Positions 1,353 to 60,038 of a stretch of 64,000 bases of DNA are shown in pieces (the stretch's first letter is position 1; the number at the start of each line of letters is the position of its first letter). A program made the translations under genes and the position numbers. The notes below the pieces were generated by a model. That model did no database searches and was not told where the DNA came from. It saw only the letters and a program-made list of their open reading frames with translations. Source of the stretch: Vicia villosa (taxonomy: Eukaryota > Streptophyta > Magnoliopsida > Fabales > Fabaceae); contig NW_026705929.1 in the NCBI RefSeq assembly GCF_029867415.1, positions 300,886 through 364,885 of the forward strand. Direction: 5' to 3'.

Positions 1353-3278
1353 ATGATCTTAACAGAGTATGACATCCAGTACACTTCACAAAAAGCGATC
1401 AAAGGAAGTGTGGTAGCTAATCATCTGGCTCATCAAGCAGTGGATGATTATCAAGCATTGAATTTTGACTTCCCAGATGAAGATATTATGCTAGTTACTG
1501 ACTACAAACAACTAGGACCAGAGGAAGGACCCGAGCTAGGATCCCGATGGACTATGGTTTTTGATGGAGCCTCTAATGCACTTGGCAATGGCATCGGAGC
1601 TGTGATCATTTATCCTGCAGGAGGACATACACCATTCACTGCCAGATTATGTTTCAACTGCACTAACAATATAGCCGAGTATGAAGCATGTATTCTGGGT
1701 CTCAAAGCTGCAATCGATCTAAGAATCAAGTTCCTGGAGGTCTACGGGGACTTGGCTCTTGTAATTTATCAAGTCAAAGAGGAATGGGACACGAAGCACC
1801 CGAATCTAATTCCTTACAAAGAATATGTGCTGAGATTGATTCCTTATTTTGAAGAAATCACTTTTAAACATATCCCGCGAGAAGAAAATCAACTAGCTGA
1901 TGCCCTAGCTACCATGTCATCTATGTTCAAAGTCAGGTGGGACAATGAGGCGCCAATGATCACCATTTACAGACAGGATGAACCAGCCTATTGCAATGAG
2001 ATTGATACCGAAGGAATGGAAGAAAAACCATGGTTCCAGGAAGTAAAAAGATATCTCGAAGTCCAAGAATACCCTGAAGGGGCATCCATTAACGATAGAA
2101 AGTTTCTACGAAGATTTGCTGCCAAATTCTTTCTAAGTAATGGAATCCTGTACAAACGAAACCATGACTCGACTTTGCTTCGTTGTGTGAACAAGAAGGA
2201 AGCAGAACAAATTATGGAAGACATACACGATGGTGCTTTTGGTACTCATTCAAGTGGACATACAATGGCTAAAAAGATCTTAAGAGCAGGTTATTACTGG
2301 TCTACCATGGAGACAGACTGCCATCGTCACTCCAGAACTTGTCACAAATGCCAGATATATACCGACAAAGTACATGTACCTCCAGTCCCATTTAACGTCC
2401 TAACGGCTCCTTGGCCTTTTGCAATGTGGGGTATTGATATGATTGGAGAAATCAAGCCTACTGCTTCCAACGGACATCTTTTTATCCTAGTCGCTATTGA
2501 TTACTTCACAAAGTGGGTAGAAGCAGCCTCGTTTGCTTCAGTCACCAAGAATGTTGTGGCCCGGTTTATCGAGCATAATCTCATTTGTCGGTATGGCATT
2601 CCTGAAAGGATCATCACAAACAATGGCACAAATTTAAACAACAAAATGATTACTGAACTCTGCACACAGTTCCAGATCAAACATCATAATTCCTCTCCAT
2701 ATCGACCAAAGATGAATGGCGCGGTAGAAGCTGCCAACAAGAACATCAAGAAGATCATACAAAAAATGACAGTAACCTATAAAGACTGGCATGAGATGTT
2801 ACCTTTTGCTCTTCATGGTTATCGCACATCAGCGCGTACTTCAACAGGGGCAACTCCATTCTCCTTAGTCTATGGTATGGAGGCAGTTCTTCCAATTGAA
2901 ATTCAGATTCCTTCCCTAAGGATTATGAAAGAAGCCGATCTAGATGAAGACGATTGGATTCAGACTCGGTTGGACCAGATAAACTTGATTGATGAGAAGA
3001 GGCTCGCAGCTATTTATCATGGTCAGTTGTACCAAAAGCGTATGATCAAAGCCTTCAACAAGAAAGTCAAAAGTCAGGCATATCAAACCGGTGATTTGGT
3101 TGTCAAACGTATCATTTTACCACAAGGTGATCCCAGAGGCAATTGGACTCCCACTTATGAGGGACCATTTGTAATCAAGAAGGTATTCTCCGGAGGAGCC
3201 ATGTTGCTTACCACTATGGACGGCGAGGATTTCCCACACCCTGTAAATACGGACATAGTCAAAAAGTACTTCGCTTAA
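1353..3278 (+). pseudogene. Truncated Ogre pol: RNase H (second domain) and integrase
   Basis: An open frame of 641 codons that matches the C-terminal half of the Ogre B Pol at 50361-53826. Frame continuity with the RWQM residues just upstream shows it begins inside the tail of the first RNase H; the first ATG is not a native start. Residues about 65-195 are the second RNase H of the Tat/Ogre group, with its acidic residues in FDGAS, NIAEYEA, YGDLAL and LADALA. Residues about 270-560 are the integrase: HHCC zinc region ending CHKCQ, catalytic core with WGIDMIG and the glutamate in NGAVEAANK. The second catalytic aspartate is lost: the core reads IITNNGT where Ogre B has IITDNGS. With no gag, protease or RT this is a defective remnant, although its frame is still open. 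Confidence 0.88.
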
Positions 3279-3289
3279 AGAAAAGCTCG

Positions 3290-3436
3290 CTAAGTTGAAA
3301 ACCTGAAAGTGCGACTTAGGCAAAAAAAATGAGCGTCTCGGTGGATTGAAAACCTGAAAGGGCGATCCAGGCAAAAATTAGAGACTAAATAAATAATAAT
3401 TATCCCGGTAAGCTGAAAACCTGAAAAGGCAGCTTA
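3290..3436 (+). other. Three GAAA-loop RNA hairpins after the integrase stop
   Basis: Three units at 3290-3319, 3342-3369 and 3409-3436. Each has a 7-8 bp outer stem (CTAAGTTG/CGACTTAG, TGGATTG/CGATCCA, TAAGCTG/CAGCTTA), then AAAA, then a 3-bp inner stem closed by GAAA (CCT-GAAA-GTG, CCT-GAAA-GGG, CCT-GAAA-AGG). Each is followed by GGCAAAA. The first lies 12 nt after the stop. Stems differ but keep pairing, which suggests selection on RNA structure. Confidence 0.8.
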
Positions 3437-4602
3437 GGCAAAAGTTAGGGAATAAAGCGTACGACTATGTCCCGTTTGGCTACCTACTCACCTTCAAGGT
3501 TCAACACATCAAAGGCACCAATCAGTCCAATCACTTTCTTCCAACAAGTGAGGGATGAGATGCTCGAAGACAGATTGGCAATAGCAGAGTTGAAACTTGA
3601 CTGGATTGTTTTAACATAGTTATTTCTCTTTATAAGTACTTTTCAAAGTTTTATGACAATTTCCTACTACTAGGATTTTTGTCTCGTACTAATCCGCCTA
3701 TTATGGCTCTCTTTCAAAATCAATGCAGCTCATGCTCAAAATCAATGTTTTCACTTTTTCTGTTTTAAACACGTAAATGTCCCAATGATAATTTTGAATG
3801 AACATATGCATTTGAATATGATTGATGTTTATAAGAAAAACAGGAATAGCAGTCAGGTAATGTCCCAATCGTCTGGACATCATCCCAAAACCAGCATCAG
3901 AAGAAAAGTTCCCCAACAGAAATGCGTTTCTCAGCAGATTCCTCAAATGAGATTTTTCTCTCCAACAAAGTGATTCGAGAAACCTTATTCCCCAGCAGGG
4001 CTGTTCAAGATCACTACCCCTAGAACGTGTGATCCTCCACACCGAGGCTTGGTCAAATAGTGCATCGGAGGATTACACATCTTTCTTATTCAAGGTGCAT
4101 CAAAATCAGAACTTTCAAAAACGGTAGTCAAATATCCCTCAACAGAACACCCTGGTCCGTAAGGAAGTTCCCCAGCTGAGTGTACTCGAACAAGATAGCA
4201 AAGATCATCAACAATCACAATGCCTTCGTTTCCAAAATAGCAAGCAGGGATTTATTTTCCCAACCAGAAGTTTGATACGCTCTAAACTGCATAAGTCATA
4301 CATCATACGCATATTCATACATAGCATATAATGTTTCATGACAAACACATACATAACATGCACGTTTCTCATTTAGTTTGAGAATCTCAACATATACATT
4401 ACATGCATCATGACATTGCATGTTACTAACTTGATTTTTTCAGGTGGACGAATATCCTCAGCAAAGTTATTCTCAATCACATGCAGTGTTCCCCTGGATT
4501 CTATTCAGACGAACATTCCTCTCAGATAATGATCAAGCCAAAGATTCAAACTGAAGAGATATCTCTTTTCGAACCACCTATCAACTCAAAACAAGCAACA
4601 CA
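3437..4602 (+). other. Ogre C 3' UTR, non-coding
   Basis: No supportable gene. Short frames on both strands have no motif. The segment contains several TTCCCCA(G/A)C words (for example near 3908, 3988 and 4154) that resemble the 3' end of the arginine tRNA usually used by Ogre elements, and otherwise unstructured AT-rich sequence. Confidence 0.6.
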
Positions 4603-9500: not shown

Positions 9501-9665
9501 AACCTACCCCCGAACCCAAAATCTCTTAAAGGTATTTTTCTGTTTCTTTTATAAACCTTTCCTTAATTGGATAAAATAAAAGTCAATGGCGACTCTCTGA
9601 TTTTCAAAACTCAAAAATAAAAAGAAGAGTCAGTTCGTATCTCACGAGAAAAACCGAGGACGACA

Positions 9666-22801: not shown

Positions 22802-23689
22802 TTGGTGGACAACTATAGGATTTATGATGAGGATAACAATGCTCGTCATAAGGTGATTAATGAAAAGAGGAACAAGGGTCCGCAGAACCGTGGGAAGCCG
22901 TATGATGGAGGGAAGGGTAAGCAAAAGATGAGTTATGGACAAAGTTTTGGTGGGGGAGACGCTCCTGCTAAGATTGTATGTTTTAAGTGTGGTAAACATG
23001 GCCACAAAAGTGATGTCTGCAATAGTGACGCGAGGAAATGTTTCAAGTGTGAAAGGGAAGGACATATATCATCCGATTGTGCATCCAAGGGAGTAGTGTG
23101 TTTTAATTGTGGTGAAGAGGGACACATGAGCGGTCAATGTCCGAAGAAGAAGGTTCAAGCTGGTGGGAAGGTGTTTGCGTTGGCTGGAACTCAGACGAAT
23201 AAGGGTGATCGACTGATCAGAGGTACTTGTTTTATTAATGGCATTTCTTTAATTGCTATTATTGATACGGGTGCTTCGCATTGTTTTATAGCCGCTGATT
23301 GTGTTAAAAGATTAGGTCTTGTTCTGTCTAATTTGGGTGGTGAGATGGTTATCGATTTACCAGCAATGGGGTCGGTGACTACTTCTTTAGTTTGTGAGAA
23401 TTACCCGGTATCAATCTTCAATAAGGACTTTATTGTTGATTTGATTTGTTTGCCGATGAACGAGTTAGAAGTGGTTCTGGGAATGGATTGGTTGATGAAT
23501 AATCGTGTCCATATCGATTGTTATCATAAGTTGGTGAGATTTCCATTTCTTGAGAAAGATGCGGAATTTGGTGTCTTATCTACCAATGAGTTAAATCGAC
23601 TGTTAGCAGATGGGGCACAGTTGTTTAGTTTGTTTGCATCATTGACTGTGGAGGGTCCAGCTGCAGTTGGGGATTTTCTAATAGTGTGA
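22802..23689 (+). pseudogene. Tekay gag zinc knuckles and protease
   Basis: Continuation of the same polyprotein. A basic linker is followed by three CCHC knuckles (CFKCGKHGHKSDVC, CFKCEREGHISSDC, CFNCGEEGHMSGQC; residues about 59-114), which bind RNA. The aspartic protease follows, with its catalytic IIDTGASHCF (about residues 153-162) and the later VVLGMDWL signature. A TGA at 23687 interrupts the linker to RT; the same frame resumes with [10 protein letters not shown], so this is a point stop in a fused gag-pol frame. Confidence 0.9.
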
Positions 23690-33199: not shown

Positions 33200-34742
33200 T
33201 GTTAGACGCTGGCCTTAGGATCTAGAGGGGGGGTGAATAGATCGTACACAGTTTTACGGAGTTAAACGACTTTTTAGCGGAAGTGATTCTGAATCGTCTC
33301 GCGTCTATTCCGAACCACTATCGAAACGATTGTATATGTGTTTAAAACCAGTCGAAGACTTGAGATAAGTGATAAGAGTATATGTTGCAGAATCAAAGCG
33401 TTGCTCTTATTGAAAATCAGATTAACTTCTTGTATGATGGACAATGTTTGCAATGCAGTAAGAGTGATAGAAACAAATATACAAACACTTGGTGATAATG
33501 ATCAAATTGATGGTGATTCAATATGTGATGGATTGTGATGTTTATATAGGTTCTTAATTCACAATCTTAACACTTGAATCGTTGATCAATTTGCTATTAT
33601 AACCAAATACGAACAAAATGTAAATGAAAAAGTAGAAGCGACAAGAACACGATATTTGTTTAGGCAGTTCGTCGATCGTCCTCGCTACGACTACGTCTGC
33701 CCCCAATTCCAAATTGAAATTGGGTAATCTTTCATTAATGTTGAAAGAAGTATATACAAAGAAGATAACAAAGCGATAAACGATAAACCAATTATGTCGA
33801 TCCTTTGAATCTTCTTCCCCCTTAATCTTGAGCAAGATCAAGGTTATCCAAGAGCTTCACTTTGATTCCCTTTTGCAGTGTCTTGATTCCTTGAACTCCC
33901 CGTTCCTCAATCGTTACACTCAGCCGAATCCTCAATGAACGCCTCTTGATAAAAACCCCCAAGAACCACCCGTCGTGGAGGACAAAACCCGCAGATTTTA
34001 TTCACCAGCAAACCCCACAAACCTTCACCCACTAGGAATCTTCAATTCCGTTCCATGGACGTTATCGAACTCATCACTAACCCGCAACGCAAGAATGATT
34101 ATGTGTAATTGTGTTGGAGATGATGAAGAACGAAGATGAGAAGCGTTTGTGTATCTTTCAGTCGTTGGTGTTGCTTTGAATAATGAACCTTGGACAATAT
34201 ATATGATAGCTTGACAGTTGGAGATGAGAGAAACAAATTTTTTGGCATTCTTGATCAGTTAGGTCGACCTCTTGTAGAGCTTAGGTCGACCTAGCAGTGC
34301 TTGCAGAATTTTGCTCCCAGTTAGGTCGACCTGTTTAAGGAGTAGGTCGACCAGAATCCTCTTCAAATGCATTCTGGGGACATTTTCTCAGATTAGGTCG
34401 ACCTAGTTGTTGTGTAGGTCGACCTAGCAGACTGGTATGTAAATTTCATCAATTTAGGTCGACCTAGATGATGTGTGAGTCGACCTAGCAGAAGTATATG
34501 GATTTTTCTCCATTTTAGGTCAACCTAGGTTGACAGTAGGTCGACCTAACTGCTGCTTTTCTGCATTCTTCTTGTTTTGCTTGTGTTGAATCAACCTATA
34601 AGCATAATAGGTCGACCTGTTCTGACATGAGTGATCAATGCTTGCTTTTCTTTGAGTTTTCTGCTTCCACCTTGTTGCTTGTATTCTTATTGAGTTTGCC
34701 ATGAATCAAAAACATCTTTGTGATTGTAATCTTGTATTCACA
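33200..34742 (-). repeat. 3' LTR of the SIRE/Maximus-type element
   Basis: On the minus strand starts TGTGAATACAAG (34742) after AAAAAGGGGGAGTA and ends GCGTCTAACA (33200); 1543 bp. The promoter-proximal U3 side carries the GGTCGACC array (34259-34617). Confidence 0.85.
34259..34620. repeat. Six pairs of TAGGTCGACCTA palindromes at two-turn spacing
   Basis: The 8-bp core GGTCGACC (or a one- or two-base variant) starts at 34262/34284, 34324/34345, 34396/34417, 34457/34478, 34518/34539 and 34589/34610. Within-pair spacing is 22, 21, 21, 21, 21 and 21 bp. Pair-to-pair steps are 62, 72, 61, 61 and 71 bp, so they differ by about one helical turn. Nine of the twelve cores are intact. Confidence 0.93.
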
Positions 34743-39958: not shown

Positions 39959-42154
39959 GAAGTGTTATCTTCATTGCAAATCACACAAAAAAAGCAACTT
40001 AAGTTCTTGCTTTCTCTCTTTTCATAATTTTCAAAAAAAGTTCCATAGTTACAAAGGAGGGGAGAAGGCAGCCAATGTTCTGTAACTTCTAAGTTACAAA
40101 ATACAAAAGAAGGAGGAAGAGGGAAGGCCTTCATACCTTGCTTTCTAGCAGCCTTCAACGATGGCTCCCATCTTCGAGCCTCCATAGATGAATCTTCAAC
40201 ATCTTCGCCGCAGGTAAGCCTCTTTTCTTTCACTCTCCATATTTCCATTAACCATTGATTGTACCTGCAGCAGTTCAAAATTCAGCAACAACAACAGTTG
40301 CGATAGCATCACAACAACAATTCAGAATCAATCTCAGCAACATCAACAGTTCACCACGGTTCTGAATCGTTCAAACAAAAGCAAAATTCAGCTTATAATC
40401 AATAGCAGTCCTGAGTCATGATTCAGAACAACATCAAAACAATTAAGAATCGGTTCAGGTTCACACCAACTTTGAACACAAATTCAAAGCAGTAGCAGCG
40501 ACATGTTCAAAGGTTCAAAACGCAGCAATCACAGTCAATTCCAGAAGCTCAGAGAATCGATACATACCTCAGCACATAAATCCGGCAAAAACCTCCTTGC
40601 CGCAGGTAAGTCGATTTCATCTTCACTCTCAATGTTGAATTCAATTGCTGCTATGAATATCATTCTGGTGTGTTGTCTGAAACCGAAAATAGGGAAACAT
40701 GAGTTTGTTGCTATACTGTAACATAAGGAAAAATTGAATAGCAAGAAATTTATTTGTGTTACCTCAAGCCATAAGCTTCCTTGCTGGTTAACTGAGAGAG
40801 AAAAACGAGTGAGAGGGAGAAGCTTTTGCTGTTGTTGTTTTTTTCGTTTCAACGAGAGAGTGAATCCGCGAGAAAGATGAGGATGAAAACGAAAAAATCC
40901 GCCATGGTTGAACCTCAGTAAACACCATTGGTTGTTCACCGTGAGAAGAGTGAAATCGAGTTGATGTTGTTGTTGTTCACCGCGAGTGATTAAGAGAAGT
41001 TGTTGTTGTTATTTTTCAAACGAGAGAGAACAGAGAGACGATGAGAAATCGCGAGCAGAGAGAGCTTTGGTTTTTTTGTTTTTGTTCCTCCTTTGTTTTT
41101 GTTCGTGAACGATGAAGAGAGGGGGGGGGGCAATTTGGCCTCTTTGTTTCGTTTTCTAGGGTTTTCTCAACCCAGGTGTGTAGTAACATGGGCGGATCCG
41201 GGTCACACTGACCCGACCCGGTCCGGCCCAGTTCTTTTTTTTTTTATTTATTTTTATTTCAGCTCTCTGCAATTGGGCTGCACCCTCCATCTGAATTGCA
41301 CCCCCCTCAAGCCCAATTGTTAAGTTCTTTTAAACTAATTTTCTTTTAGTTTTCTTTTGAAAATTGTTTTCATAAAAAGACTTAATATTTTAATTAAATA
41401 TAGGATATAGTTTATTTTTTCTAATCCTTATTGAAAAAACTCCAAAAAATATTTTAGATGCATATTTGATTTTATGTTTTCTAATTATTTTCTTTTTCCA
41501 TGAAAAAACACAAAAAAATATCTTTTCTTAGATTAATTTTGTTTGAATTTGATATTCTCATATAATTTTGTGTAGTTAATCATGTAAATTTTATTTGATT
41601 ACTGTTACACATATCATTTGAATTTTCTCACTTCATCCGAGACTTCGAGATTATTTCTCTGTTGTTCTCTGGCTTTGTCTGTTTGTTTGGTCTTCCATTT
41701 GCTGTAGAAATCTATAAACAATTACTGGATGGTCATGGAATATTGAAAGCTGTGAGCTCATCCGATGTTCTATTCTGCTGGTGTGGATGCTTAACATCTG
41801 TTGGGATCCCAATTTATTCCAAGCACATCACTTGAGGATCACGGTAACACCGCAAACTCAGAAATCCAATTTTCTCATTCTTCGAGGTAAGCCTAAAATT
41901 CAATCAACTGTTTTCACAACAGTAATCAGTTCACTTTCAAATCATCCATTGTTTTTCAAAACAGTGGGGCCTCTCGAATATTAGAGAGTGTAAGTCCCGC
42001 TCCTTTTTCTTTTTTTTTACAGTTTTTCTTCAAACAGAATAAACTTTTCAAAATAACAAACTTTCAAACAGTTTTTCAAACGACGCGTCTGTAAATGAAC
42101 AATCAACCATGTTTTGTAAATAAAACACGGGCCTCCACGTAGGTATAAGTCCCA

Positions 42155-42270
42155 AGCCCTTTTGTACATACCCATTCCTGCACATGAAATTGGGTATTTC
42201 ATCGTACACACCGTTTTGTACATACCCATTCCTGCACATGAAATTGGGTATTTCATTGTACACACCGTTT
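42155..42270 (+). repeat. 54-bp tandem duplication in the Ogre A LTR
   Basis: Two copies of a unit containing TGTACATACCCATTCCTGC and GAAATTGGGTATTTCAT. Ogre B has a single copy at the equivalent place (about 44000-44060 and 62512-62570). Confidence 0.9.
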
Positions 42271-42544
42271 TGTACATACCTCGATCAGTTTGATTTTTAA
42301 ATAACAAACCAAAAATGAAGGTTTCTTTAAATCTTCCCAAAAATACCATGGGCCTCCTGTCGCGGGGAAAAATCGTTGTCTTTTTTCGGGATGAGACACC
42401 TGATGCCTTCTTTGGGCTCGAGTGCTCAAAAAATGATTTTTCTTTTGTACGGACCAAACTTTTTATTGTTTCCAAAAGAGGAAAAGGAAAAAAGTTGCAA
42501 TAACCTAAAAGTGGGGGAGAGATCTTTGGGTAAGAGGGTTGGTT

Positions 42545-48265: not shown

Positions 48266-48278
48266 GATGCCCCTATTT
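48266..48278 (-). other. Polypurine tract of Ogre B
   Basis: AAATAGGGGCATC in sense orientation, directly before the LTR start TGTCATACCCC. Confidence 0.85.
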
Positions 48279-48571
48279 AAGTTTCTTCAACCTGAGATAT
48301 GAAGATTGAAAATCTTCATTTTGATAGGGTGGAAGAGACTTAAATATCAGAAGACGCAAATTTTGGACCTAAGATACCAAAATTGCAAATGATGCAAGGA
48401 TATCTTTACCGAGGGATATCAAGGACTGACTCCGCTGGGGAAAAGAGATTGGGAAGGATGTCTCAATCCGTTTTAGGAAGAGAATCCGTTTTTGTTTTTT
48501 TCGGGAAAGCAAGTGTATGCTTCACCGGGGAATGATAGCTTTGTAAAAAACTTACCAATCGACATTATCGA

Positions 48572-48867: not shown

Positions 48868-49529
48868 GGTAATAAGACCCTGATTGTCAAATGGTCTTCA
48901 TGATTGATTTCCTTGAGAGGAAAAGGCTTTTGAAAGAGACATAAGCTGCTCAGATGATGAGGCTATTGCTTATTGTCTGTTTTTCACGACTCTGTTTGAG
49001 GAATCGGAACTTGAATCTTTGGTAAAGACAGGGTTCTAACCAAGAATGAATTGGAAAGAAATAGTCAAACAAGACTTTATACCCAATGAGGAATGAACTC
49101 GAATGGGTGTTTTCTCCTTTGTTTTAAGAGGAGAAACTAAAGCAACCTTCTTCCACGAGGAATGATCTCAGTGGGGAACTGGAGAAAGAAGATGTTCTTT
49201 CTGCTTATGGGTGACGACCTACTTGGAGAGACGACACGCCCATATTTGTTTCTTTTCCTTCTTTTTTTCTTTTTCTTTTTTTTCTTGAGGATAGATATAT
49301 CCTGAACAAGTGATTTTAAGCAGACATTGAAAAAAGCGATGATGCATAAATGATGCAAATATGTACGAATGATGAATGTCATGAATGTAGCATGCATGCT
49401 GACAATACTGACAGACAAAAGAGTATATACTGGAGAGGGACCAACGTCGCAATACAACCAGATACTTGGCAAATGTTCTTCAACACGGTGTAGAAAACAC
49501 GGGTGATGAATGATGCTTCGTGCTTTAAA

Positions 49530-49640
49530 CTTCTCTGGGGAAGATTGGCATCTTTACTGGGATGGAAGAGCTTCTTCACTGGAGATTGGAATCTTCGTCA
49601 CTAGGGATAAAAGACCTTCTTCACTGGGGATAGAAGAACT
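49530..49640. repeat. Short repeats complementary to the Ogre B primer site
   Basis: About five degenerate copies of CTTCACTGGGGA on the plus strand, the exact one at 49619-49630 and a one-mismatch copy at 49574-49585. A further copy with one change (CTTCACCGGGGA) is at 48520-48531. In element RNA these read TCCCCAGTGAAG, complementary to 12 nt of the primer site at 60837-60848. Confidence 0.75.
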
Positions 49641-50190
49641 TCTTTACCTCGAGGGATAATTGCTTCAAGAATTCTTTTCTGGGACAAGAATACCGTTGTC
49701 TCAACAAATTTTCAGGGAGAACCCTTTTGCTCATCCTATGGAGACGACTGCTGATGTTCCTTCCGTTGTTCACAACTCAAAGGAAAGTTTCGCTTTTATT
49801 TTGAAAAAGAAAAGTGAAGTAAATTCATTTAAAACTTATTTTTTCTTTTTTTTCAAAAGTGAATAACACAATTAAAGCGTCATTTTGCAAGCTGAAAGAA
49901 ATTAAAGATTGCAAACAAATGGGCACAGGGCTCAAATTTATTTAATAAGATGGAAATCAGCTAAAGGCGTGATTCCATAGAGTATTTACAAAAGTTGGAA
50001 ATGGTAATTATGCGGAAAAGGCTACATTGAAAGCAATAACCACTATTCCCCCTAACAACTTTAAGTTCCAACTGTGCTTGTCGCTTCAGATTGGCGATGA
50101 TTCGATCGTAGATCCTTTGATGAAAAGACGATTCCGGTGACGAAGTAAGGACTGATGCAGTTACTTTGTCATAAATCCCTAATTTTTGCC

Positions 50191-50337
50191 TAGATTGCCC
50201 TTTCAGGTTTTCAATCTACCAGGATGAATTTTTTTCTGTTTATTGTCTCTAATTTTTGCCTGGACCGCCCTTTCGGGTTTTCAGTCCACCGAGACGCTCA
50301 TTTTTGCCTAAGTCGCCCTTTGCGGGTTTTCAACTTA
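50191..50337 (-). other. Three GAAA-loop RNA hairpins after the Ogre B integrase stop
   Basis: In sense order: 50337-50309 (TAAGTTG/CGACTTA, inner CCC-GCAAA-GGG), 50288-50261 (TGGACTG/CGGTCCA, inner CCC-GAAA-GGG) and 50218-50191 (TAGATTG/CAATCTA, inner CCT-GAAA-GGG). Each has AAAA between outer and inner stem and is followed by GGCAAAAAT. The first is 23 nt after the stop. Same design as 3290-3436. Confidence 0.85.
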
Positions 50338-50360
50338 CCGAGCTGTTCTTTTATATATTT

Positions 50361-53300
50361 TTAGACAAAGTATTTCTTGACTGCATCAGCATTTACAGGA
50401 TGTGGGAGTTCATCACCATCCATAGTTGCAAGAGTCATGGCGCCGCCAGAAAATGTTCTTTTGACAACATATGGGCCTTCGTAATTAGGAGACCATTTGC
50501 CCCTGGAATCTGGTTGAAAAGACAAGATCTTTTTAAGCACGAGGTCGCCTTCTCGAAATTCACGAGGTCGAACCTTTTTGTTGAAGGCTTGTTTCATCCT
50601 TGCTTGGTATAACTGTCCATGGCATAGAGCAGTCATACAATTTTCTTCGATTAAGTTCAACTGATTGTATCTGCTTTGACACCATTCAGCCTCTGATAAC
50701 TTAGTCTCCATGAGGACTCTCATTGATGGGATTTCAACTTCTACGGGGAGCACAGCTTCCATGCCGTATACTAGAGAAAAGGGAGTTGCCCCTGTTGAAG
50801 TACGCACTGAAGTACGGTACCCATGTAAAGCAAATGGCAGCATTTCATGCCAATCTTTGTAAGTGACGACCATTTTCTGGACGATCTTCTTAATGTTCTT
50901 GTTGGCGGCTTCAACGGCGCCGTTCATTTTTGGTCTGTAAGGAGAAGAGTTATGATGCTCAATCTTGAATTCCTCACACAAATCTTTCATCATTTTGTTG
51001 TTCAAGTTTGAACCATTGTCAGTAATGATCTTGCTGGGAATACCATATCGGCAAATGATGTTAATCTTGATAAACCTCACAACCACTTGTCTTGTAACAT
51101 TGGCATAAGATGCTGCTTCGACCCATTTGGTGAAGTAATCAATTGCTACCAAGATGAAACGATGACCGTTTGAAGCTTTTGGTTCGATCATTCCAATCAT
51201 GTCGATACCCCACATGGAAAAAGGCCATGGAGATGAGAGAACGTTGAGTAGAGTCGGTGGCACATGGATCTTATCTGCGTAGATCTGGCACTTGTGACAT
51301 CTCTTCACGTGTTTGTAACAATCAGATTCCATTGTCAACCAATAGTATCCTGCTCTTAAGATCTTCTTGGACATTGCATGCCCATTTGAATGAGTTCCAA
51401 AGGACCCTTCATGCACTTCATGCATTAACATGTCTGCTTCGTGTCTATCCACGCATCTGAGCAAAACCATGTCGAAATTTCTTTTGTATAGCACATCTCC
51501 GTTCAGGAAGAAACTGCCAGAAAGTCTCCTTAGAGTTTTCTTATCTTTGTTTGATGCCCCAAGTGGGTACTCTTGAGTTTGAAGGAAGCGTTTGATGTCG
51601 TGGAACCACGGTTTATCATCGATGACTGCTTCGGTTGCAAATACATAGGCGGGTCTTTCAAGGCGCGTAATTCTGACTGTAGGCATATCGTTCCAATGAT
51701 TGACTTTGAACATGGAAGATAGAGTGGCCAAGGCGTCTGCCATTCGATTCTGATCTCGAGGTATATGATGCAATTCAACCTTGTTGAAGAAAGTCAACAG
51801 ACGTCTTGCATAATCTCTGTAAGGAATCAAGCCAGGGTGGTAAGTTTCCCACTTGTCTTTGATTTGGTTGATCGCGAGGGCTGAATCTCCATATATGTCG
51901 AGGATCTTGATCCTTAAGTCAATGGCTTCTTCGAGACCCATGATACAAGCTTCATATTCTGCGATGTTGTTGGTGCACTCAAATAGCAATCTGGCGGAGA
52001 ACGGGATATGAGTACCCTTGGGAGTGATGATGATTGCCCCAATTCCATTGCCAAAAGCGTTTACTGCTCCATCAAAAATTAGGCCCCATCTTGATCCGGG
52101 TTCAGGACCTTCTTCAGGTAACGGTTCGTCACAATCTTTCATCTTCAAGTACAAGACATCTTCGTCAGGAAAGTCAAGCTTGAGAGATTGATATTCATTA
52201 ATTGGTTGATGCGCCAAATGATCGGCGAGAATGCTTCCTTTGACCGCTTTTTGAGCACGGTACTCAATGTCATACTCAGATAACAGCATTTGCCATCGGG
52301 CAATCCTTCCTGTTAAGGCAGGCTTTTCAAAGACATACTTGATCGGATCCATTTTGGAAATTAACCAAGTAGTATTGTTGATCATGTATTGGCGGAGACG
52401 TTTTGAAGCCCAAGCCAAAGCACAACATGTTTTTTCGAGCATGGAGTAACGAGACTCACAGTCTGTGAATTTCTTACTCAAGTAATAGATGGCATGCTCC
52501 TTCTTACCAGTTTCATCTTGTTGCCCAAGCATACAACCCATGGATTCTTCCAACACGGTAAGGTACATGATTAGTGGTCTTCCTTCAACCGGAGGAATCA
52601 ATATTGGTGGTTCTAACAAGTACTCTTTGATACTGTCAAACGCTTTCTGGCAATCTTCAGTCCATACAACCCCTTGATCTTTGCGGAGAAGCTTGAAAAT
52701 TGGCCCACAAGTAGCAGTCATTTGAGAGATAAATCTGGAGATATAGTTCAATCGTCCGAGAAATCCTCTTACTTGCTTTTCAGTTTTTGGTACAGGCATC
52801 TCTTGAATAGCTCTGACTTTGTCGGGATCTACTTCAATACCTCTTTGGCTGACAATGAAACCCAAGAGTTTTCCAGATCTAACCCCAAAAGTACATTTGT
52901 TAGGATTCAAACGAAGCTGATATTTCCTTAATCGTTGAAACAACTTCAAAAGGTATTCAATATGTTCTTCTTCTGTGCTGGACTTGGCTATCATGTCGTC
53001 CACATAAACTTCTATTTCTTTATGCATCATGTCATGAAAGAGAGTAGTCATTGCCCTTTGGTAAGTTGCGCCTGCATTCTTCAATCCGAACGGCATCACT
53101 TTGTAGCAAAAGGTACCCCATGGGGTGATGAAAGATGTCTTCTCCATGTCTTCGGGAGCCATCTTGATCTGATTATAACCAGAGAACCCGTCCATGAAGG
53201 AAAAGACGTTGAACTTAGCGGTGTTATCGACCAGCATGTCGATATGTGGTAATGGAAAGTCATCTTTTGGACTGGCCTTGTTCAAGTCACGGTAGTCAAC

Positions 53301-53826
53301 ACACATTCTGACTTTGCCATCCTTCTTTGGAACTGGCACAATGTTGGCCAACCATTGAGGATACTCGGAGGTGACTAGAAAACCTGCGTCGAGTTGCTTT
53401 TGAACTTCCACTTTGATCTTGTTAGCCATATCAGGGTGAGTCCTTCGCAATTTCTGCTTAACTGGCGGACATTCTGGCTTCAATGGCAAGTAATGCTGAA
53501 CAATATTGGTATCCAACCCAGGCATGTCTTGGTAGGACCAGGCAAACACGTCAACATATTCTTTGAGAAGGTCTGTCAACTTACTCTTGATATCAGCATC
53601 AAGCAGCGATCCAATGGTCACTTCTTTTTTGTCTTCTTCAGAACCCAAGTTGATCTTTTCTAAAGGCTCTTTGTGAGGCAGAATGGCTCTTTCCTCGTGC
53701 TTAAGTAATCGAGAGATCTCGTCCGGGATCTCCTCTTCTTCCTCTTCTTCGGCTTCGAACACAGGAAACTCAAAGTTGGGAGAGGGCATAGGGTTATTGC
53801 ATTCAATGGGTTTATCAATAGTAAAT
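50361..53826 (-). CDS. Ogre B Pol exon: reverse transcriptase, two RNase H domains, integrase
   Basis: Open from the predicted splice acceptor at 53826 to the stop at 50361; an ATG at 53834 lies in the intron and is probably not used. Numbering residues from that ATG: acidic linker about 20-75; RT about 130-310 with VPVPKKDGKVRMCVDY, FSFMDGFSGYNQI and catalytic YVDD at 277-280. A first, Ty3-type RNase H whose usual first aspartate is missing (MYLTVLEESMGCML) is followed by a second RNase H retaining its acidic residues (FDGAVNAFG, NIAEYEA, YGDSALA, MADALA); the dual arrangement is characteristic of the Tat/Ogre clade. Integrase has an HHCC region ending CHKCQ and an intact triad in WGIDMIG, ITDNGSN and NGAVEAANK. 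No stop or shift is seen. It is translated only as a fusion to Gag-Pro after splicing. Confidence 0.95.
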
Positions 53827-54184
53827 CTGCACATGTGATTTATATTTATTTCAGAAAATTTATGAATGCAAGAGTGTATGCAGATTTTTTTGAAAAGCTT
53901 TTTTTTATTTTATTTTGGTTTTTTAGGATTACCATTTCCAGAAAAAAAAGCAAAAATAAAACATATAATGTAGGGAATTCAATATGACACTTTATTTATG
54001 ATTCATTTTTGAAACAAAGCCCTAAACACAAACTCATTTGTCTTGGGCAGGACAAAGAGGGAAACTTTTAAAACAAAGCCCTATACACAAAGTTATTTGG
54101 GCGGAACATTTAAAAGCAAAGCCCTATAAAACATCTCTCTGCTTTGGGCAAGGCAGGAGGTCAAAATAACAGCGAGGTGATTAC
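53827..54184 (-). other. Ogre intron between gag-protease and pol (358 bp)
   Basis: Predicted donor GTAATC at 54184 overlaps the gag-protease stop codon (54183-54181). Predicted acceptor CATGTGCAG ends at 53827 after an AT-rich tract. Joining the exons keeps the reading frame and removes the stop. An intron at this place is an established Ogre feature; the exact sites here are read from sequence, not from transcripts. Confidence 0.85.
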
Positions 54185-57100
54185 TTTGAGCGGCGAACAA
54201 TATTCGGAACGTCGACAGCTTTCCAGTAGCAACGAACTCCTCTGTGTATTATGTATTCAGGAAAATTCTCCCCAGAATTATCTTCAGTATTGACATTGAC
54301 CGCTGGTCGAGCAGGATTTGAAGGTCCTGGTTTGTCAACCTTGTTCTTTGTAGAGTCGAAACAGTCTTCTTCTACTTCTTGAAGAGCATAAGACGAGTCA
54401 CAATCTCCAGAATTTTCAGGATGTATTTCCCAGTCTTCAGGATGAAGAGACTCATTGTCAGCGACACTTTCTGAGTCAACTGCGGGATCATCTTCCCCTT
54501 CGTCTTCAAAAATGGCATTTATGTGATAATAACCATCATCAGGATTATTAATCTTGGCAGATGCATTGAATCCGAAATCTTCAGTAATTTCAGGCTGCTG
54601 AGAAAATTGACAGGGCTGATAAACCTCTTCTGGTTGACCATTATATTCAAAGGAATCTCCCCATCCAGTTGGTTGAATATCCTCAATCGCAATCTTGTAA
54701 CTTTCAGGTGCAGTATATTTTACCATATAATCAAATTTTCCACTTGGTTGTCCCAAGGTGTCCCAGATCTCTGCAGGAACAGGCTCAATTTCTTTGCCTT
54801 TGGATTTCTCTGAAGGAGGATGTGGTTCTTCCTGAGATATGTATCCTGAGTCATTGAGATAACATTTCCATTCTTCTTCAGGATCGGGTAAACCTTCTTC
54901 GATGCATTCTTCGATAAGGACATTAACCTCTTGAGGAATTGGGTTAAGGAATCCTCCACTAATGAATGTTTCTTTGATCGGACGAAGGGTTTCAACCTTC
55001 TTAGTGCAGTTGGAGAATGTTGGTGAACATCCGAGACCCGCTCTAGTTTCATTCTTGGTAGGGATCACAACTTGCCCCCAGCCAGTGGTAGTTCCATCTT
55101 TCACTAATTTTACCGCCTCTTTGTAAGAAGAGATCGATGCTTTCTTTTTGGAAGATTCGTCTTCTAAAGAGAGACCTTGGAACTGGGTTCCTTCCACATC
55201 ATCAGCACTGATAAAAGAGAAATTGGACAAATGACTCACCATCAAGGCTTGTTCTCCACTTATCGTTACTAATTTTCCATTTGTTACAAATTTTAACTTT
55301 TGATGGAGCGTAGAAGTTACTGCCCCTGCTTCATGGATCCATGGTCGTCCTAACAGACAACTATAAGCAGCTTGAATGTCCATGACCTGGAAAGTGATTT
55401 GAAATGTATGTGGACCAATTGTCATGGGAAGGTTGACTTCGCCGATAACAGATTTTCGCGACCCATCAAATGCTTTGACAACTACACCACTGAACTTCAT
55501 AGGCATTCCTTGGTAAGACAAGCGAGCAAGAGTCGTCTTTGGCATCACATTCAAGGAAGATCCGGTGTCTACCAACACATTGGACAAAGAGTCTGACTGA
55601 CAGTTCATAGAAATGTGCAAGGCAAGATTGTGATTTCTACCCTCCTCGGGGAGTTCTTCATCACAGAAGCTTAAATTGTTGCAAGCTGTTATATTGGCTA
55701 TTATCCCATCAAAGTGGTCAACAGTCACATCATGATCAACAAAAGCCTGATCCAAAACTCTCATCAGGGCTTCCCTGTGTGCTTCTGAGTTTAAAAGCAA
55801 TGAAAGTATCGAGATCTTCGAAGGAGTCTGCATGAGCTGATCCACAATCTTGTATTCACTTCTTTTGATAAGCTTCAAAATTTCATCAAAGTCAGGATTC
55901 ACATTGGTTCCACTGGACTGACCAACATCAGTGTTTGTATTACTGACAGGAATTTCCACAGGATTTCCTACTGGAACATTGGCAGGATTTTGTCCGGTTG
56001 CAGGAGCAACAGGTTGCTTTGGAGGTAGTGGAGTATACACACGTCCACTTCTTGTTACTCGACTCACATCAGCGATATTCACAACAGATGAAAGAGTAGG
56101 TAAAGGAACTTCTTGTCCATTCTTTATCATGGTAGCATTGTAGTTGTATGGAACTGCCTTGTCAGAGTCATAAGGAACAGGTCCAGGTAGACAAATGATC
56201 AAAGGAGTAACAGGAACCTTCGGTTTGTTATAAGTAACTTCCATGCGCTCAGGCATGTTGAAATGAGGAACGATGACGTTAACTGTAGGCATTTCCGAGT
56301 TGATATCTGAGACTAAAAGCTCATGTGGATAGCATCCTATCATGTTAACTTCATTTTCATTCCTATTTCTGTAGATCTGAATAGTACCATTATCCAACAG
56401 TACTTGGAGATCTCTTCTCACAATCGAACATCCGTGAGGATCTACACAACATATGCTACAGGAACCATAGTGATGCTGGCGAAAATTCTGCCCTCGACAG
56501 AGAGTAGCGTGCATTTGTACCAAATTGGCTCTTGAGTGATTGATATTATAGACTCTATATGGACCAGGACATCCATACACCATGTTTACAACATGCCCTC
56601 CATGATTGGGTAGCGGATTTGCTTGCACATTAGGATTCAAATTTCTGAAAGAGAGGAGATTAGATCTTACCAACCTCTGAACTTCATGTTTCAAAGCTAT
56701 GCAATGCTCGAGATCATGGCCAGGTGCTCCTTGATGATAAGGGCATGAGACCTCAGCTTTGTACCACCATGGTAGTTTCTCAGGTACGGGTGGTGGTGCT
56801 TTAGTTTGAACAAGACCTCTTTCAATCAAAGCAGGATACAATTCTGTGTATGTCATTGGAATCGGATCAAACTGTGGATCTCTTTGTACACGGTTCTGAT
56901 TATTATTAAACTGTTGAACCTGTGGTCGAGGCTGTTGCTGAAACTGCGGAGTAAATCCCGGATTCGGTGTTGTATTAACGGCTGGTGCGATAGCAGCTAC
57001 CTGTCGTTGACGATTGACATTTCCTCTTGGCTTTCCTTGGGATACCATGTCAACACTTTGTTCTTTCTTCTTTGGGAAACCACTTCCAAACTTTTTGGTT

Positions 57101-58203
57101 CCACTCGAAGATCCACCTTCTTTAGTTAGACGTCCGGTTCGGACTCCTTCTTCTAGACGCATCCCCATGTTTACCATCTCAGTGAAATCACTTGGAGCAC
57201 TAGCAATCATGCGTTCATAATAAAACGGGCTGAGAGTATTCAGGAAGATCTTTGTCATCTCTTTCTCTTTTAACGGTGGATTAATCTGAGCAGCAGTTTC
57301 TCTCCATCGTTGGGCATACTCTTTGAAAGTTTCATGGTCTTTCTGAGCCATGGATCGAAGCTGATCTCTGTCCGGAGCCATATCCGAGTTATACTTGTAT
57401 TGTCGGACAAAGGCCTCGCCTAGATCGTTGAAAGTTCGAATATTGGTGCTATCCAAACCTGTGTACCACTTCAGTGCGGCACCAGTCAAACTGTCTTGAA
57501 AGTAATGGATAAGCAACTGATGATTATCTGCATAAGTAGACATCTTCCGGGCATACATCACAAGATGGCTTTGTGGACAAGAACTACCTTTGTATTTCTC
57601 AAAGTCTGGGACCTTGAACTTAGCTGGTATTTGTACACTGGGAACCAAACATAGCTCCTGGGCATTCTTTCCAAACAAATCTTTTCCCCGAATAGCTTTG
57701 ACTTCCAGCTGAATCTTGTTGAATTGTTCTTGGAGATCTCCTACAAGATTACGCTGATTTGTGCTATCACCCTGATCATGATAAATCTCATTGTCTCCGT
57801 AAGGAATAGTGTGAACCATAGGAGTCGGAACCGTCATAGTGGGTTGAGAAAGTGCCATAGTGACTTGAGAAAAAGTTACCCCTGAATGTGGAATAAATGC
57901 TGAACCTTGCGTAGCAGGCGCTTCAGTTGTAGCTGTTTGAACCCCAGAGAAATTATGGCGGAATCCTGTACCAAAGCTGAAAGGCGTGCCCCAACCTTCT
58001 GGCATGGAGAAAGATGGAATACCGAACGCAACTGTAGAAACTGTAGTGACTTCAGATGTTACCGTTGCTTGACTGTTGGGTGGCGGCGGCTGATTTTGTG
58101 CGGCCATCAAGGAGTCAACCAGAGTAGTAAGACTTTCCAACTTTTCCTGAAGAGTGGTCACTGTACCACGGAGCTCAATATTCTCTTGTTCAGAGTGTTC
58201 CAT
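54181..58203 (-). CDS. Ogre B Gag-protease (1340 aa)
   Basis: The frame starts at the ATG at 58203 (MEHSEQENIEL). Residues about 5-37 look like a coiled coil (LRGTVTTLQEKLESLTTLVDSL). About 38-135 are low-complexity, rich in P, T, S and Q. The capsid-type gag block is about 200-355 (LVMYARKMSTYADNHQLLIHYF, AALKWYTGL, YAQRWRETAAQI). A zinc-knuckle-like CPYHQGAPGHDLEHC is at 487-501, with histidine in place of the second cysteine; a further cysteine-rich patch is near 569-592. The aspartic protease has DTG at 879-881 (LVDTGSSLNVMP) and the later LLGRPWIHEAGAV. The C-terminal region is acidic. The frame is uninterrupted. Without splicing it ends at the stop at 54181; with splicing it continues into RT. 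Confidence 0.95.
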   Translation of the reverse strand: MEHSEQENIELRGTVTTLQEKLESLTTLVDSLMAAQNQPPPPNSQATVTSEVTTVSTVAFGIPSFSMPEGWGTPFSFGTGFRHNFSGVQTATTEAPATQGSAFIPHSGVTFSQVTMALSQPTMTVPTPMVHTIPYGDNEIYHDQGDSTNQRNLVGDLQEQFNKIQLEVKAIRGKDLFGKNAQELCLVPSVQIPAKFKVPDFEKYKGSSCPQSHLVMYARKMSTYADNHQLLIHYFQDSLTGAALKWYTGLDSTNIRTFNDLGEAFVRQYKYNSDMAPDRDQLRSMAQKDHETFKEYAQRWRETAAQINPPLKEKEMTKIFLNTLSPFYYERMIASAPSDFTEMVNMGMRLEEGVRTGRLTKEGGSSSGTKKFGSGFPKKKEQSVDMVSQGKPRGNVNRQRQVAAIAPAVNTTPNPGFTPQFQQQPRPQVQQFNNNQNRVQRDPQFDPIPMTYTELYPALIERGLVQTKAPPPVPEKLPWWYKAEVSCPYHQGAPGHDLEHCIALKHEVQRLVRSNLLSFRNLNPNVQANPLPNHGGHVVNMVYGCPGPYRVYNINHSRANLVQMHATLCRGQNFRQHHYGSCSICCVDPHGCSIVRRDLQVLLDNGTIQIYRNRNENEVNMIGCYPHELLVSDINSEMPTVNVIVPHFNMPERMEVTYNKPKVPVTPLIICLPGPVPYDSDKAVPYNYNATMIKNGQEVPLPTLSSVVNIADVSRVTRSGRVYTPLPPKQPVAPATGQNPANVPVGNPVEIPVSNTNTDVGQSSGTNVNPDFDEILKLIKRSEYKIVDQLMQTPSKISILSLLLNSEAHREALMRVLDQAFVDHDVTVDHFDGIIANITACNNLSFCDEELPEEGRNHNLALHISMNCQSDSLSNVLVDTGSSLNVMPKTTLARLSYQGMPMKFSGVVVKAFDGSRKSVIGEVNLPMTIGPHTFQITFQVMDIQAAYSCLLGRPWIHEAGAVTSTLHQKLKFVTNGKLVTISGEQALMVSHLSNFSFISADDVEGTQFQGLSLEDESSKKKASISSYKEAVKLVKDGTTTGWGQVVIPTKNETRAGLGCSPTFSNCTKKVETLRPIKETFISGGFLNPIPQEVNVLIEECIEEGLPDPEEEWKCYLNDSGYISQEEPHPPSEKSKGKEIEPVPAEIWDTLGQPSGKFDYMVKYTAPESYKIAIEDIQPTGWGDSFEYNGQPEEVYQPCQFSQQPEITEDFGFNASAKINNPDDGYYHINAIFEDEGEDDPAVDSESVADNESLHPEDWEIHPENSGDCDSSYALQEVEEDCFDSTKNKVDKPGPSNPARPAVNVNTEDNSGENFPEYIIHRGVRCYWKAVDVPNIVRRSK

Positions 58204-58514: not shown

Positions 58515-60038
58515 CTAAGCATCTTCATCAGACGAAGAACCAAATGCATTGTGCAGCTTGAGTTTCATGATTTCTTTCCCATAGCGAGCTTTCAATTCGG
58601 CCTTTTCAGTCCTTAGCTTGTCAACAATATTCTTCCAATCATCAGGAGTCGGAGCGTTGCTTGTTGAACCTTCAAGATTCTTCTTGCTTTCTTTGATGTA
58701 CCTCTTGATTGCAGCGTCTTTCTGACGAATCTTCTCATCTTTACTCATGAGCCATCCATCTTGATAATAGAGTGTTTCTTCGTGATATTTTACTCTTTTC
58801 TTCAACTTTCTATTTTCCACCTCAGTGCTACGAAATTTTTCTTCCCAAGCATCTTTTTCTATCCTCATCTTAGCCAAAGTGTCTTGGTATTCCTCCATAG
58901 CAGGAATGTTGGGTCGTTGAGACACTGTAGGAAACATGGGTTTTTCATAAGCATAAGGCATTTGGAACTCTTTTGCTCTTTTCTTTACCCAGCAAGTGTA
59001 GGTGTCCATGGCAATGCAATTTCTTTCCTCACCTTTTTCTTTCCATCGGACGTCGTACCAAGCTCTCACCATTCTCGCTTTCAAACTTTTAGGATTATCC
59101 CCTTCTCGGTAGAAGTAACCTTCCACTGTAGGACCAATGGGTTTAACTGAATTTGCATACCCGAGTTGTCGTCGGGCTAGGACCGGATTGTAGTTAATTC
59201 CTCCTTGCGTGCCAATGAGGGGTACGTTGGCAAACTCTCCACAACTATCAATGGTTTCTGTACCACAGCGAGCCAAGGTATACCAACGGATATCATTATT
59301 AGTAAGAGACATAAGTCTTCGAGGCCAACGCAAACCTTCTCGGTTTTCTGTGAAAATAGGAGACTGAGGTAAGTGTGAAACAATCCATTTGAACAACAAT
59401 GGTGCACAACATACAATGATTCCACCGCCTTGGCGATTCCTATGATGGATAGAGAAATACATGTCACCAAGTAAAGTCGGAACAGGATTTCCAATCAGAA
59501 AGATCTTTATGGCATTGATATCAACAAAGTTGTCGACATTGGGAAACAGAACCAACCCATAGATGAGCAAGGCTAGTGTAGCTTCAAAAGCTATCATGCT
59601 ACCAGTCTCGATGAAATCAAAGGCTTTCTTTACTAGGAAGTGTGAAGTTAAACCCGGGAGGTTTCCTTTGGTAGTCCAATTACTCTCTACTTCAGACTTC
59701 TTCATGTGGATACTTGATGCAATGACATGTGACTTAGGAATGGCTTCCAAACCATTGAAGGGTATCTTGTCAGACACAGGAATACCTAAAAGATTGGCAT
59801 ATTCTTCCAAGGTTGGTACCAACTGGTAGTCTGGAAAGGTAAAACACCGGTAGACGGGATCATAGAACTGAACCAGAGTCTTGAGAAGTCCTTCATCAAC
59901 ATGAGTGTTCAAGATAGGCAAAAGCTTTCCGTAACTTTTCCTAAAATTACAAGGATCTTGTACAGAAGATGCTAACTCTATCAGTCTTTCTACATCAGGC
60001 GCTTTGAAACCGTACTTTTTGGTATACCTTTTTTCCAT
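58515..60038 (-). CDS. Ogre B ORF1 protein (507 aa), function unknown
   Basis: The first long frame after the primer site, starting at the ATG at 60038 (MEKRYTKKYGFKAPDVERL) and open to 58515. An ORF1 upstream of gag is a defining feature of Ogre elements. Residues about 1-330 form a globular region with motifs FYDPVYRCFTFPDYQLVPTL, EEYANLLGIPV and FEATLALLIYGLVLFPNVDNFVD. These recall the plant mobile domain / DUF7745-like proteins of plant transposons, a family assignment made from memory of the motif and not searched. Residues about 370-500 are highly charged and likely coiled coil (KMRIEKDAWEEKF, VENRKLKKRVKYHEETL). The C-terminus is acidic (SSSDEDA). No enzymatic motif is visible. Confidence 0.9.
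   Translation of the reverse strand: MEKRYTKKYGFKAPDVERLIELASSVQDPCNFRKSYGKLLPILNTHVDEGLLKTLVQFYDPVYRCFTFPDYQLVPTLEEYANLLGIPVSDKIPFNGLEAIPKSHVIASSIHMKKSEVESNWTTKGNLPGLTSHFLVKKAFDFIETGSMIAFEATLALLIYGLVLFPNVDNFVDINAIKIFLIGNPVPTLLGDMYFSIHHRNRQGGGIIVCCAPLLFKWIVSHLPQSPIFTENREGLRWPRRLMSLTNNDIRWYTLARCGTETIDSCGEFANVPLIGTQGGINYNPVLARRQLGYANSVKPIGPTVEGYFYREGDNPKSLKARMVRAWYDVRWKEKGEERNCIAMDTYTCWVKKRAKEFQMPYAYEKPMFPTVSQRPNIPAMEEYQDTLAKMRIEKDAWEEKFRSTEVENRKLKKRVKYHEETLYYQDGWLMSKDEKIRQKDAAIKRYIKESKKNLEGSTSNAPTPDDWKNIVDKLRTEKAELKARYGKEIMKLKLHNAFGSSSDEDA

What the first reader, a model, noticed from the sequence alone, without database searches (positions are those of the whole stretch)
50191..50337. Ogre B carries the same hairpin triplet with compensatory changes
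All three Ogre B copies fit the plan. The middle copy is TGGACTG/CGGTCCA against TGGATTG/CGATCCA in Ogre C, a C-G to T-A swap at the same pair. The inner stem varies CCC/GGG, CCT/GGG and CCT/AGG, again preserving pairing. The loop is GAAA except one GCAAA. The two elements are clearly diverged in coding sequence, so the structure has been kept.
Basis: partly seen in the sequence, partly recalled or inferred. Interest (0 to 1): 0.9.

Follow-up and report, generated by a model that had tools for sequence, protein, structure and literature searches.

The report
Conserved RNA hairpin array in Ogre
Giant plant jumping genes called Ogre carry, just after their last gene, a row of small RNA hairpins whose shape has been kept while the letters changed, which points to a control element on the element's RNA.

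Summary
Confirmed, and larger than reported. Both Ogre elements in the window carry three hairpins on the element's sense strand, starting 17 nt (B) and 6 nt (C) after the pol stop codon. Each is a longer module: outer stem P1 (4-5 bp), internal loop (GG against GGCAAAAAUUA), stem P2 (7 bp), AAAA bulge, stem P3 (3 bp), GAAA-type loop; modules 1 and 2 abut. The six copies form 86 of 90 pairs, with changes on both sides at 8 of 15 pair positions. The array is 86% identical between the elements, while fourfold-degenerate pol sites are 33% identical (51 of 153) and the rest of the 3' UTR hardly aligns. Antisense ORFs from a public protein collection (127 fetched, 4 named Medicago truncatula) cross the same array in other copies: 938 of 952 P2 pairs in 136 distinct hairpin words can form on the sense strand, a level no shuffle reached, and the non-Watson-Crick pairs are G.U on the sense strand. 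Copy number is not constant: two, three and four all occur. No Rfam match. Best reading: a cis-acting element of full-length Ogre RNA, CTE-like export (0.4) or packaging (0.3). The function is inferred, not tested.

The parts
50296..50344 (-). Ogre B module 1 (P1 GCUC/GAGC, P2 UAAGUUG/CGACUUA, AAAA bulge, P3 CCC/GGG, loop GCAAA); first P1 base 17 nt after the pol stop
50245..50295 (-). Ogre B module 2 (P1 GUCUC/GAGAC, P2 UGGACUG/CGGUCCA, P3 CCC/GGG, loop GAAA); abuts module 1 with no spacer
50175..50225 (-). Ogre B module 3 (P1 AUCCU/GGGAU, P2 UAGAUUG/CAAUCUA, P3 CCU/GGG, loop GAAA)
3284..3334 (+). Ogre C module 1 (same P1 and P2 as B1; GC in place of GG, one P3 pair broken)
3335..3385 (+). 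Ogre C module 2 (P1 GUCUC/GAGAC, P2 UGGAUUG/CGAUCCA); abuts module 1
3402..3452 (+). Ogre C module 3 (P1 AUCC/GGGA, P2 UAAGCUG/CAGCUUA, P3 CCU/AGG)
50361..53834 (-). Ogre B RT-RNase H-integrase ORF; its TAA stop (50361-50363) precedes the array
54181..58203 (-). Ogre B gag-protease ORF; lies 346 nt upstream of the listed start of the RT ORF, where pea and Medicago Ogre have an intron (PMC6317226 passages)
58515..60038 (-). Ogre B extra ORF 1, DUF7745
1353..3278 (+). Ogre C RNase H-integrase ORF, TAA stop at 3276-3278
48268..48279 (-). probable polypurine tract of Ogre B; 3' LTR begins about 48265 (read by eye; the matching stretch before the Ogre C LTR is at about 5430-5441)

Best explanation
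Shown here: the array is a selected RNA structure on the sense transcript of Ogre elements, built of repeated lollipop modules (P1, GG against GGCAAAAAUUA internal loop, P2, AAAA bulge, P3, GAAA-type loop), with modules 1 and 2 abutting and the array starting a few to about 20 nt after the pol stop. Stem letters are free to change; bulge, loop and A-rich internal loop are kept, as expected of a repeated binding site. Inferred: it is a multivalent docking site that sets the fate of the full-length, intron-retaining Ogre RNA. Most likely it recruits host export factors, as CTE, RTE and MTE elements do in animal retroelements, so that unspliced Ogre RNA can leave the nucleus. I hold the structural claim at about 0.95 and the export role at about 0.4.
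For: Structure: 86 of 90 pairs and two-sided changes at 8 of 15 pair positions on six copies; 98.3% against 88.3% shuffled; in other copies 261/266, 567/574 and 110/112 P2 pairs possible on the sense strand, 0 of 500 shuffles in each of three classes. Strand: allowing G.U on the sense strand adds 48 pairs to the Watson-Crick count (890 to 938), allowing it on the other strand adds 4. Constraint: array identical at 144 of 167 aligned positions, fourfold pol sites at 51 of 153, other 3' UTR with one 28-nt match. Geometry: last spacing 47-49 nt in 49 of 54 three-module ORFs, which fits the zero-spacer joint of modules 1 and 2. Place: first P1 6-20 nt from the pol-end anchor in 26 of 30 ORFs. Export: Ogre transcripts are only partly spliced (PMC6317226 passages); animal LTR elements export such RNA by structured elements (PMC12786077 section 2.2; PMC7551171 passages).
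Against: No functional data. PMC12786077 (section 2.2) says plants do not use the NXF1 receptor that CTEs bind and that export of plant LTR-element RNA has not been studied directly, so the animal model cannot be carried over as it stands. The array would sit on spliced and unspliced RNA alike. Presence in intronless Tat lineages was not tested. P1 is less well supported than P2 in other copies: at H2 478 of 500 cells pair against 266-417 when slid, but shuffles reach the distinct-word count in 31 of 500; at H1 and H3 they do so in 124 and 150 of 500, and P1 shows no clear strand bias (sense/antisense 153/148, 162/158, 141/143). Split by position, the P2 sense test weakens to 20, 3 and 23 of 500.
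Confidence: 0.4

Rival explanations
1. Packaging signal: the modules are read by Ogre Gag or by the ORF1 protein and bring the genomic RNA into particles.
For: Repeated lollipops with fixed loop letters suit a coat-type binding site (inference). The gag-protease ORF has no CCHC knuckle by pattern and no zf-CCHC Pfam hit, unlike the other Ty3-type element of the window, so structured RNA could be needed for recognition.
Against: Known retroviral packaging signals lie near the 5' end (recalled). The array is on spliced and unspliced RNA alike, so it would not by itself select genomes.
Confidence: 0.3
2. Stop-codon-linked element: protects RNA with a roughly 2-kb 3' UTR from nonsense-mediated decay, or acts as a switch because a ribosome ending at the pol stop touches module 1.
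For: The first P1 lies 17 and 6 nt after the stop in the window and 6-20 nt from the pol-end anchor in 26 of 30 ORFs (in 8 of the 30 the anchor letter is F or I, so a stop there is not shown; 3 of the 30 are wrong anchors). Rous sarcoma virus has a stability element after a stop (PMC2925335, listing and start of abstract).
Against: In turnip crinkle virus an unstructured stretch after the stop protects and a stable hairpin there raises decay, although a readthrough structure also protects (PMC6277124 passages). Position may simply reflect that the rest of the 3' UTR is hypervariable.
Confidence: 0.15
3. No RNA role: a DNA-level repeat or palindrome array, an antisense RNA, or a peptide.
For: The modules are repeats; the antisense strand is open in many copies, and four such ORFs are annotated as Medicago truncatula proteins. 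In Ogre B the pol frame stays open for 20 codons past the stop, to the end of module 1.
Against: Two-sided stem changes and G.U on one strand only. In Ogre C the pol frame stops again after 4 codons, and 4-nt and 5-nt loops shift the frame.
Confidence: 0.03

Closest known systems
[quoted passage not shown] RTE of IAP; MTE of MusD
   Same: Structured cis-acting RNA of an LTR retroelement whose RNA keeps an intron; CTE has repeated internal loops; position between last gene and 3' LTR (recalled).
   Different: CTE is one long stem-loop of 150-175 nt with two internal loops that binds NXF1 (PMC7551171 passages); here there are separate lollipops. The AAGACA motif that those passages name for the gamma-CTE is absent from both arrays. 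Export not tested.
Rous sarcoma virus RNA stability element
   Same: RNA element directly after a stop codon of a retroelement (PMC2925335, listing).
   Different: It follows gag (recalled); here the array follows pol, the last ORF. Decay not tested.
3' UTR tandem repeats of Ogre/Tat elements
   Same: Same region between pol and 3' LTR; repeated units (PMC7004042 passages).
   Different: Those are hypervariable and unrelated between elements; the hairpin array is the conserved part and has compensatory changes.
Retroviral packaging hairpins
   Same: Short hairpins with tetraloops in tandem (recalled).
   Different: Near the 5' end in retroviruses (recalled); here at the start of the 3' UTR. 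Packaging not tested.

Membership tests
Ogre (Tat clade of plant Ty3/gypsy) | extra RNase H domain between RNase H and integrase | tested here: met
   Ogre B pol: RT_RNaseH 419-521, RVT_3 597-704, rve 871-968; criterion from PMC6317226 passages.
Ogre (Tat clade of plant Ty3/gypsy) | gag-protease and RT-RNase H-integrase in two ORFs with a gap between | tested here: met
   54181-58203 and 50361-53834, 346 nt apart; published mean gap 274 bp. Splicing itself not tested.
Ogre (Tat clade of plant Ty3/gypsy) | extra ORF upstream of gag | tested here: met
   DUF7745 ORF at 58515-60038; the domain named for 57% of Ogres in PMC6317226 is the plant mobile domain, not this one.
CTE/RTE/MTE export elements | lies between last ORF and 3' LTR (recalled) | tested here: met
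   Array starts 17 and 6 nt after the pol stop, about 2 kb before the LTR.
CTE/RTE/MTE export elements | one long stem-loop with two internal loops (CTE) | tested here: not met
   Separate lollipops in the RNAfold structures of both elements.
CTE/RTE/MTE export elements | promotes export of unspliced RNA | not testable with these tools
   Needs a reporter assay.
any Rfam 15 family | reaches a family's gathering score | tested here: not met
   Whole window 0 matches; 49500-50700 at E up to 10: 8 sub-threshold matches, none over the array. The Ogre C array was searched at gathering level only.
RSV-type stability element | after a stop codon and blocks nonsense-mediated decay | tested here: inconclusive
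   Position met; effect on decay not testable here.
ENE triple-helix element | U-rich internal loop that clasps a poly(A) tail (recalled) | tested here: not met
   The internal loop is A-rich on the strand that pairing marks as the RNA.
retroelement packaging signal | bound by Gag and needed for packaging | not testable with these tools
   Needs binding and particle assays.

The most novel reading that the evidence does not exclude
The first RNA transport or packaging element of a plant LTR retrotransposon: a spacer-free pair of lollipops plus one or two more, set so that a ribosome finishing pol touches the first module. Translated, spliced RNA would have its array disturbed, while untranslated, intron-retaining RNA keeps it folded: a physical switch between the mRNA and the genome role, read by a plant adaptor in place of NXF1.
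Probability: 0.2. Interest if true: 0.88.

Novelty: new variant of a known kind. Interest (0 to 1): 0.72.

Why it matters
Ogre elements make up a large part of many legume genomes (recalled), and how plant retrotransposon RNA that keeps its intron is exported has not been studied directly according to PMC12786077 (section 2.2). A conserved RNA module with a clear consensus and fixed geometry is something that can be deleted, moved to a reporter and used as bait for the protein that reads it. It also marks the end of pol in these elements and explains some annotated proteins that are antisense translations of the array.

Tried and rejected
DNA relatives. The hairpin pattern gave 0 hits in viral contigs and 7 in genome contigs, all in bacterial records; all 7 were read and none has the GGCAAAAA flank, so I take them as chance. 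Viral-contig scans with the pol C-terminus, the RT domain and the hairpin profile confirmed no relative. blastn to plasmids and phages: no match. No nucleotide sequence of a further Ogre copy was therefore available; the wider test rests on antisense ORFs read back through codon sets, where counts are upper bounds for real and shuffled data alike.

Rejected readings: sense peptide and stop-codon readthrough (Ogre C stops again after 4 codons, loops shift the frame; but Ogre B stays open for 20 codons); antisense RNA or DNA cruciform (G.U on the sense strand only); chance palindromes; known Rfam RNA. Folding energy is not used as an argument (Ogre C z -0.55).

Selection effects. The second and third protein searches used profiles holding hairpins, so module counts are biased upwards; the first used an ORF with about one and a half hairpins, and 8 of 8 hits carry at least two. 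One search reported 202 proteins at E up to 1; 120 were listed, 82 never seen. The scan is permissive: by eye the fourth module of P0018, P0033, P0039, P0077 and P0091 and one of P0052 are false, which leaves five convincing four-module ORFs (P0025, P0075, P0081, P0108, P0126). Hairpin words were picked by patterns on the core, which in class C4 also restrict two residues that overlap the stem. In one search the small classes L5 (4 words, 116 of 500), A4 (3, 500 of 500) and C5 (3, 500 of 500) gave no signal; L5 and C5 were not rerun.

Literature. One 13-letter string of copy B1 is in 0 held papers. Searches on Ogre or plant LTR elements with hairpin, stem-loop, transport element, packaging signal and secondary structure listed no such element by title and start of abstract; one search showed 20 of 170 papers, 15 of 16. 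The word hairpin does not occur in PMC11963269 or PMC6317226. Steinbauerova 2008 is not held; Neumann 2003, Macas and Neumann 2007 and Macas 2009 were not looked up, so an earlier description there cannot be excluded.

Full report
What is there. The window is plant DNA, of legume type as far as the relatives show: four of the fetched proteins that cross the same array are named Medicago truncatula. Ogre B lies on the minus strand: ORF1 with DUF7745 at 58515-60038, gag-protease at 54181-58203, RT-RNase H-integrase at 50361-53834. Its LTR stretches are 99.2% identical over 3142 aligned positions, the 5' LTR running off the window, so it is a young copy. Ogre C, on the plus strand, keeps the RNase H-integrase end of pol at 1353-3278. 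In both, three hairpins follow the pol stop.

The observation. The Ogre B hairpins and the B-C swap are as described, except that CCT/AGG belongs to Ogre C copy 3. On the MAFFT alignment of the six copies the P2+P3 structure pairs 98.3% of 60 cells against a shuffled mean of 88.3% (0 of 500), and sliding the partners by one to three columns drops this to 20-53%. Four of 10 pairs have two-sided changes, which 44 of 500 shuffles also reach, and pair types number 7 against a shuffled mean of 9.4. The six copies are related, so this alone is not proof.

A larger module. RNAfold draws an outer stem around each hairpin in both regions. Each module is P1 (GCUC/GAGC, GUCUC/GAGAC or AUCCY/GGGAW), an internal loop of two bases (GG; GC in C1) against 11 (GGCAAAAAUUA or GGCAAAAGUUA; 9 in B1, 12 in C1), P2 of 7 bp, four bulged A, P3 of 3 bp and a 4-5 nt GAAA-type loop. 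Together 86 of 90 cells pair, and 8 of 15 pair positions show two-sided change. P1 alone pairs 27 of 30 cells; 8 of 720 reassignments of the 3' strands, the true one included, do as well, against a mean of 21.7. In both elements the 3' strand of module 1's P1 is followed at once by the 5' strand of module 2's P1.

Constraint. In pol the two elements share 64.9% of amino acids over 638 positions and 51 of 153 fourfold-degenerate sites. The array is identical at 144 of 167 aligned positions, with 8 gapped columns. The other 3' UTR parts (1910 and 1994 nt) share one 28-nt match at 86% (E 2.6e-4) near their LTR ends and otherwise only hits with E of 0.47 or more. The blastn comparison of the two slices runs through pol and the array and stops at 50176/3451.

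Relatives. No plant nucleotide collection could be searched. The antisense strand of the array is open, and a protein search with the antisense ORF 50256-50612 found 8 ORFs, all crossing at least two hairpins: five have three, two start after the third, one has two because two are fused (reading; scan). A profile search gave 27 proteins and a hairpin-centred profile 202 at E up to 1, of which 120 were listed; P0001-P0127 were fetched in all. A permissive scan finds three modules in 65 of 127, two in 47, four in 10, one in 4, five in 1; with at most two mismatches it is 54, 58, 6 and 8, none in 1. In the 54 three-module ORFs of that stricter set the last spacing is 47-49 nt in 49, and the first is 60-76 nt in 47. 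The tight last spacing is what the spacer-free joint predicts. Four ORFs read as two such pairs (48, 70, 48 nt in P0075, P0081, P0108, P0126).

Covariation in the relatives. For three frame/loop classes I asked, over all codon choices, how many of the seven P2 pairs can form in each distinct hairpin word. Sense strand: 261/266, 567/574 and 110/112, 0 of 500 shuffles in each. Watson-Crick only: 233, 551, 106. G.U allowed on the other strand: 235, 552, 107. So the other pairs are G.U on the retroelement's sense strand (48 extra) and hardly on the other (4 extra). C-to-T decay hits both strands alike and would leave A.C as often as G.U, so the bias argues for selection on the sense RNA. Caveats: the counts are upper bounds, the words are not independent, and when hairpins are split by position the sense shuffle test weakens to 20, 3 and 23 of 500. 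P1 at H2 can pair in 478 of 500 cells against 266-417 when slid, but its shuffle test is marginal (31 of 500) and at H1 and H3 not significant (124 and 150 of 500), and P1 shows no clear strand bias. P1 thus rests mainly on the window copies.

Place. In 30 ORFs with a recognisable antisense pol end the first P1 starts 6-20 nt from it in 26, 39 nt in one, and 89-104 nt in three that are wrong anchors; the anchor letter is L, as for an antisense TAA, in 19 of 30. In the window the distances are 17 and 6 nt. The covariance model finds no seventh copy in the window, so no other part of it, the second Ty3-type element included, carries the array.

How it most likely works. Kept loop, bulge and A-rich internal loop, free stems, two to four repeats: this is the pattern of a multivalent protein docking site (inference). 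In pea and Medicago the stretch between gag-protease and RT of Ogre is an intron that is removed from only part of the transcripts (PMC6317226 passages), so the element must export and package an RNA that cells tend to retain. Animal LTR elements use structured RNA that recruits export factors (PMC7551171 passages; PMC12786077 section 2.2). The latter section says export of plant LTR-element RNA has not been studied directly and that plants do not use NXF1. I put CTE-like export first (0.4), packaging second (0.3), a stop-linked stability or switch role third (0.15). The turnip crinkle virus work gives mixed support for the last (PMC6277124 passages). None of these roles was tested.

Known or new. 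No Rfam family reaches its threshold in the window, and none overlaps the Ogre B array even at E up to 10. A 13-letter string of the array is in no held paper, and five literature searches listed no such element. Key older Ogre papers were not available or not looked up, so prior mention is possible. I file it as an RNA family not in Rfam, of a known kind: a cis-acting structured element of an LTR retrotransposon.

Noticed in passing
P0019, P0043, P0073, P0083: Antisense translations of the hairpin array are annotated as Medicago truncatula proteins (hypothetical, uncharacterized or 'transmembrane protein').
   Followed up: partly
P0096: An ORF runs from what looks by eye like a copia-type RNase H frame into an antisense copy of a hairpin pair, as if one element were nested in another.
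   Followed up: no
window 1-1346 and 5441-9600: Ogre C looks rearranged: an LTR end with a primer-site-like stretch is joined directly to the RNase H part of pol, and the LTR after its 3' UTR is again followed by a primer-site-like stretch at about 9590; the two LTR pieces do not match each other.
   Followed up: partly
window 41740-42357: An inverted piece similar to the Ogre B LTR (about 81-82% identical) lies directly beyond the end of the 3' LTR.
   Followed up: no
window 54181-58203: The gag-protease ORF of Ogre B has no CCHC knuckle by pattern or Pfam, while the other Ty3-type element at 22802-23689 has two.
   Followed up: partly
window 4613-5154: A 48-bp tandem repeat (about 11 copies) in the 3' UTR of Ogre C, of the hypervariable kind known from Ogre.
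   Followed up: no
window 34250-34620: Many copies of a short palindromic AGGTCGACCT-type motif in a degenerate 61-bp repeat.
   Followed up: no
window 20700-21110 and 27460-27860: Repeated GGTCCGCTAAGCGGA-type palindromes in the direct repeats (probable LTRs) of the second Ty3-type element.
   Followed up: no
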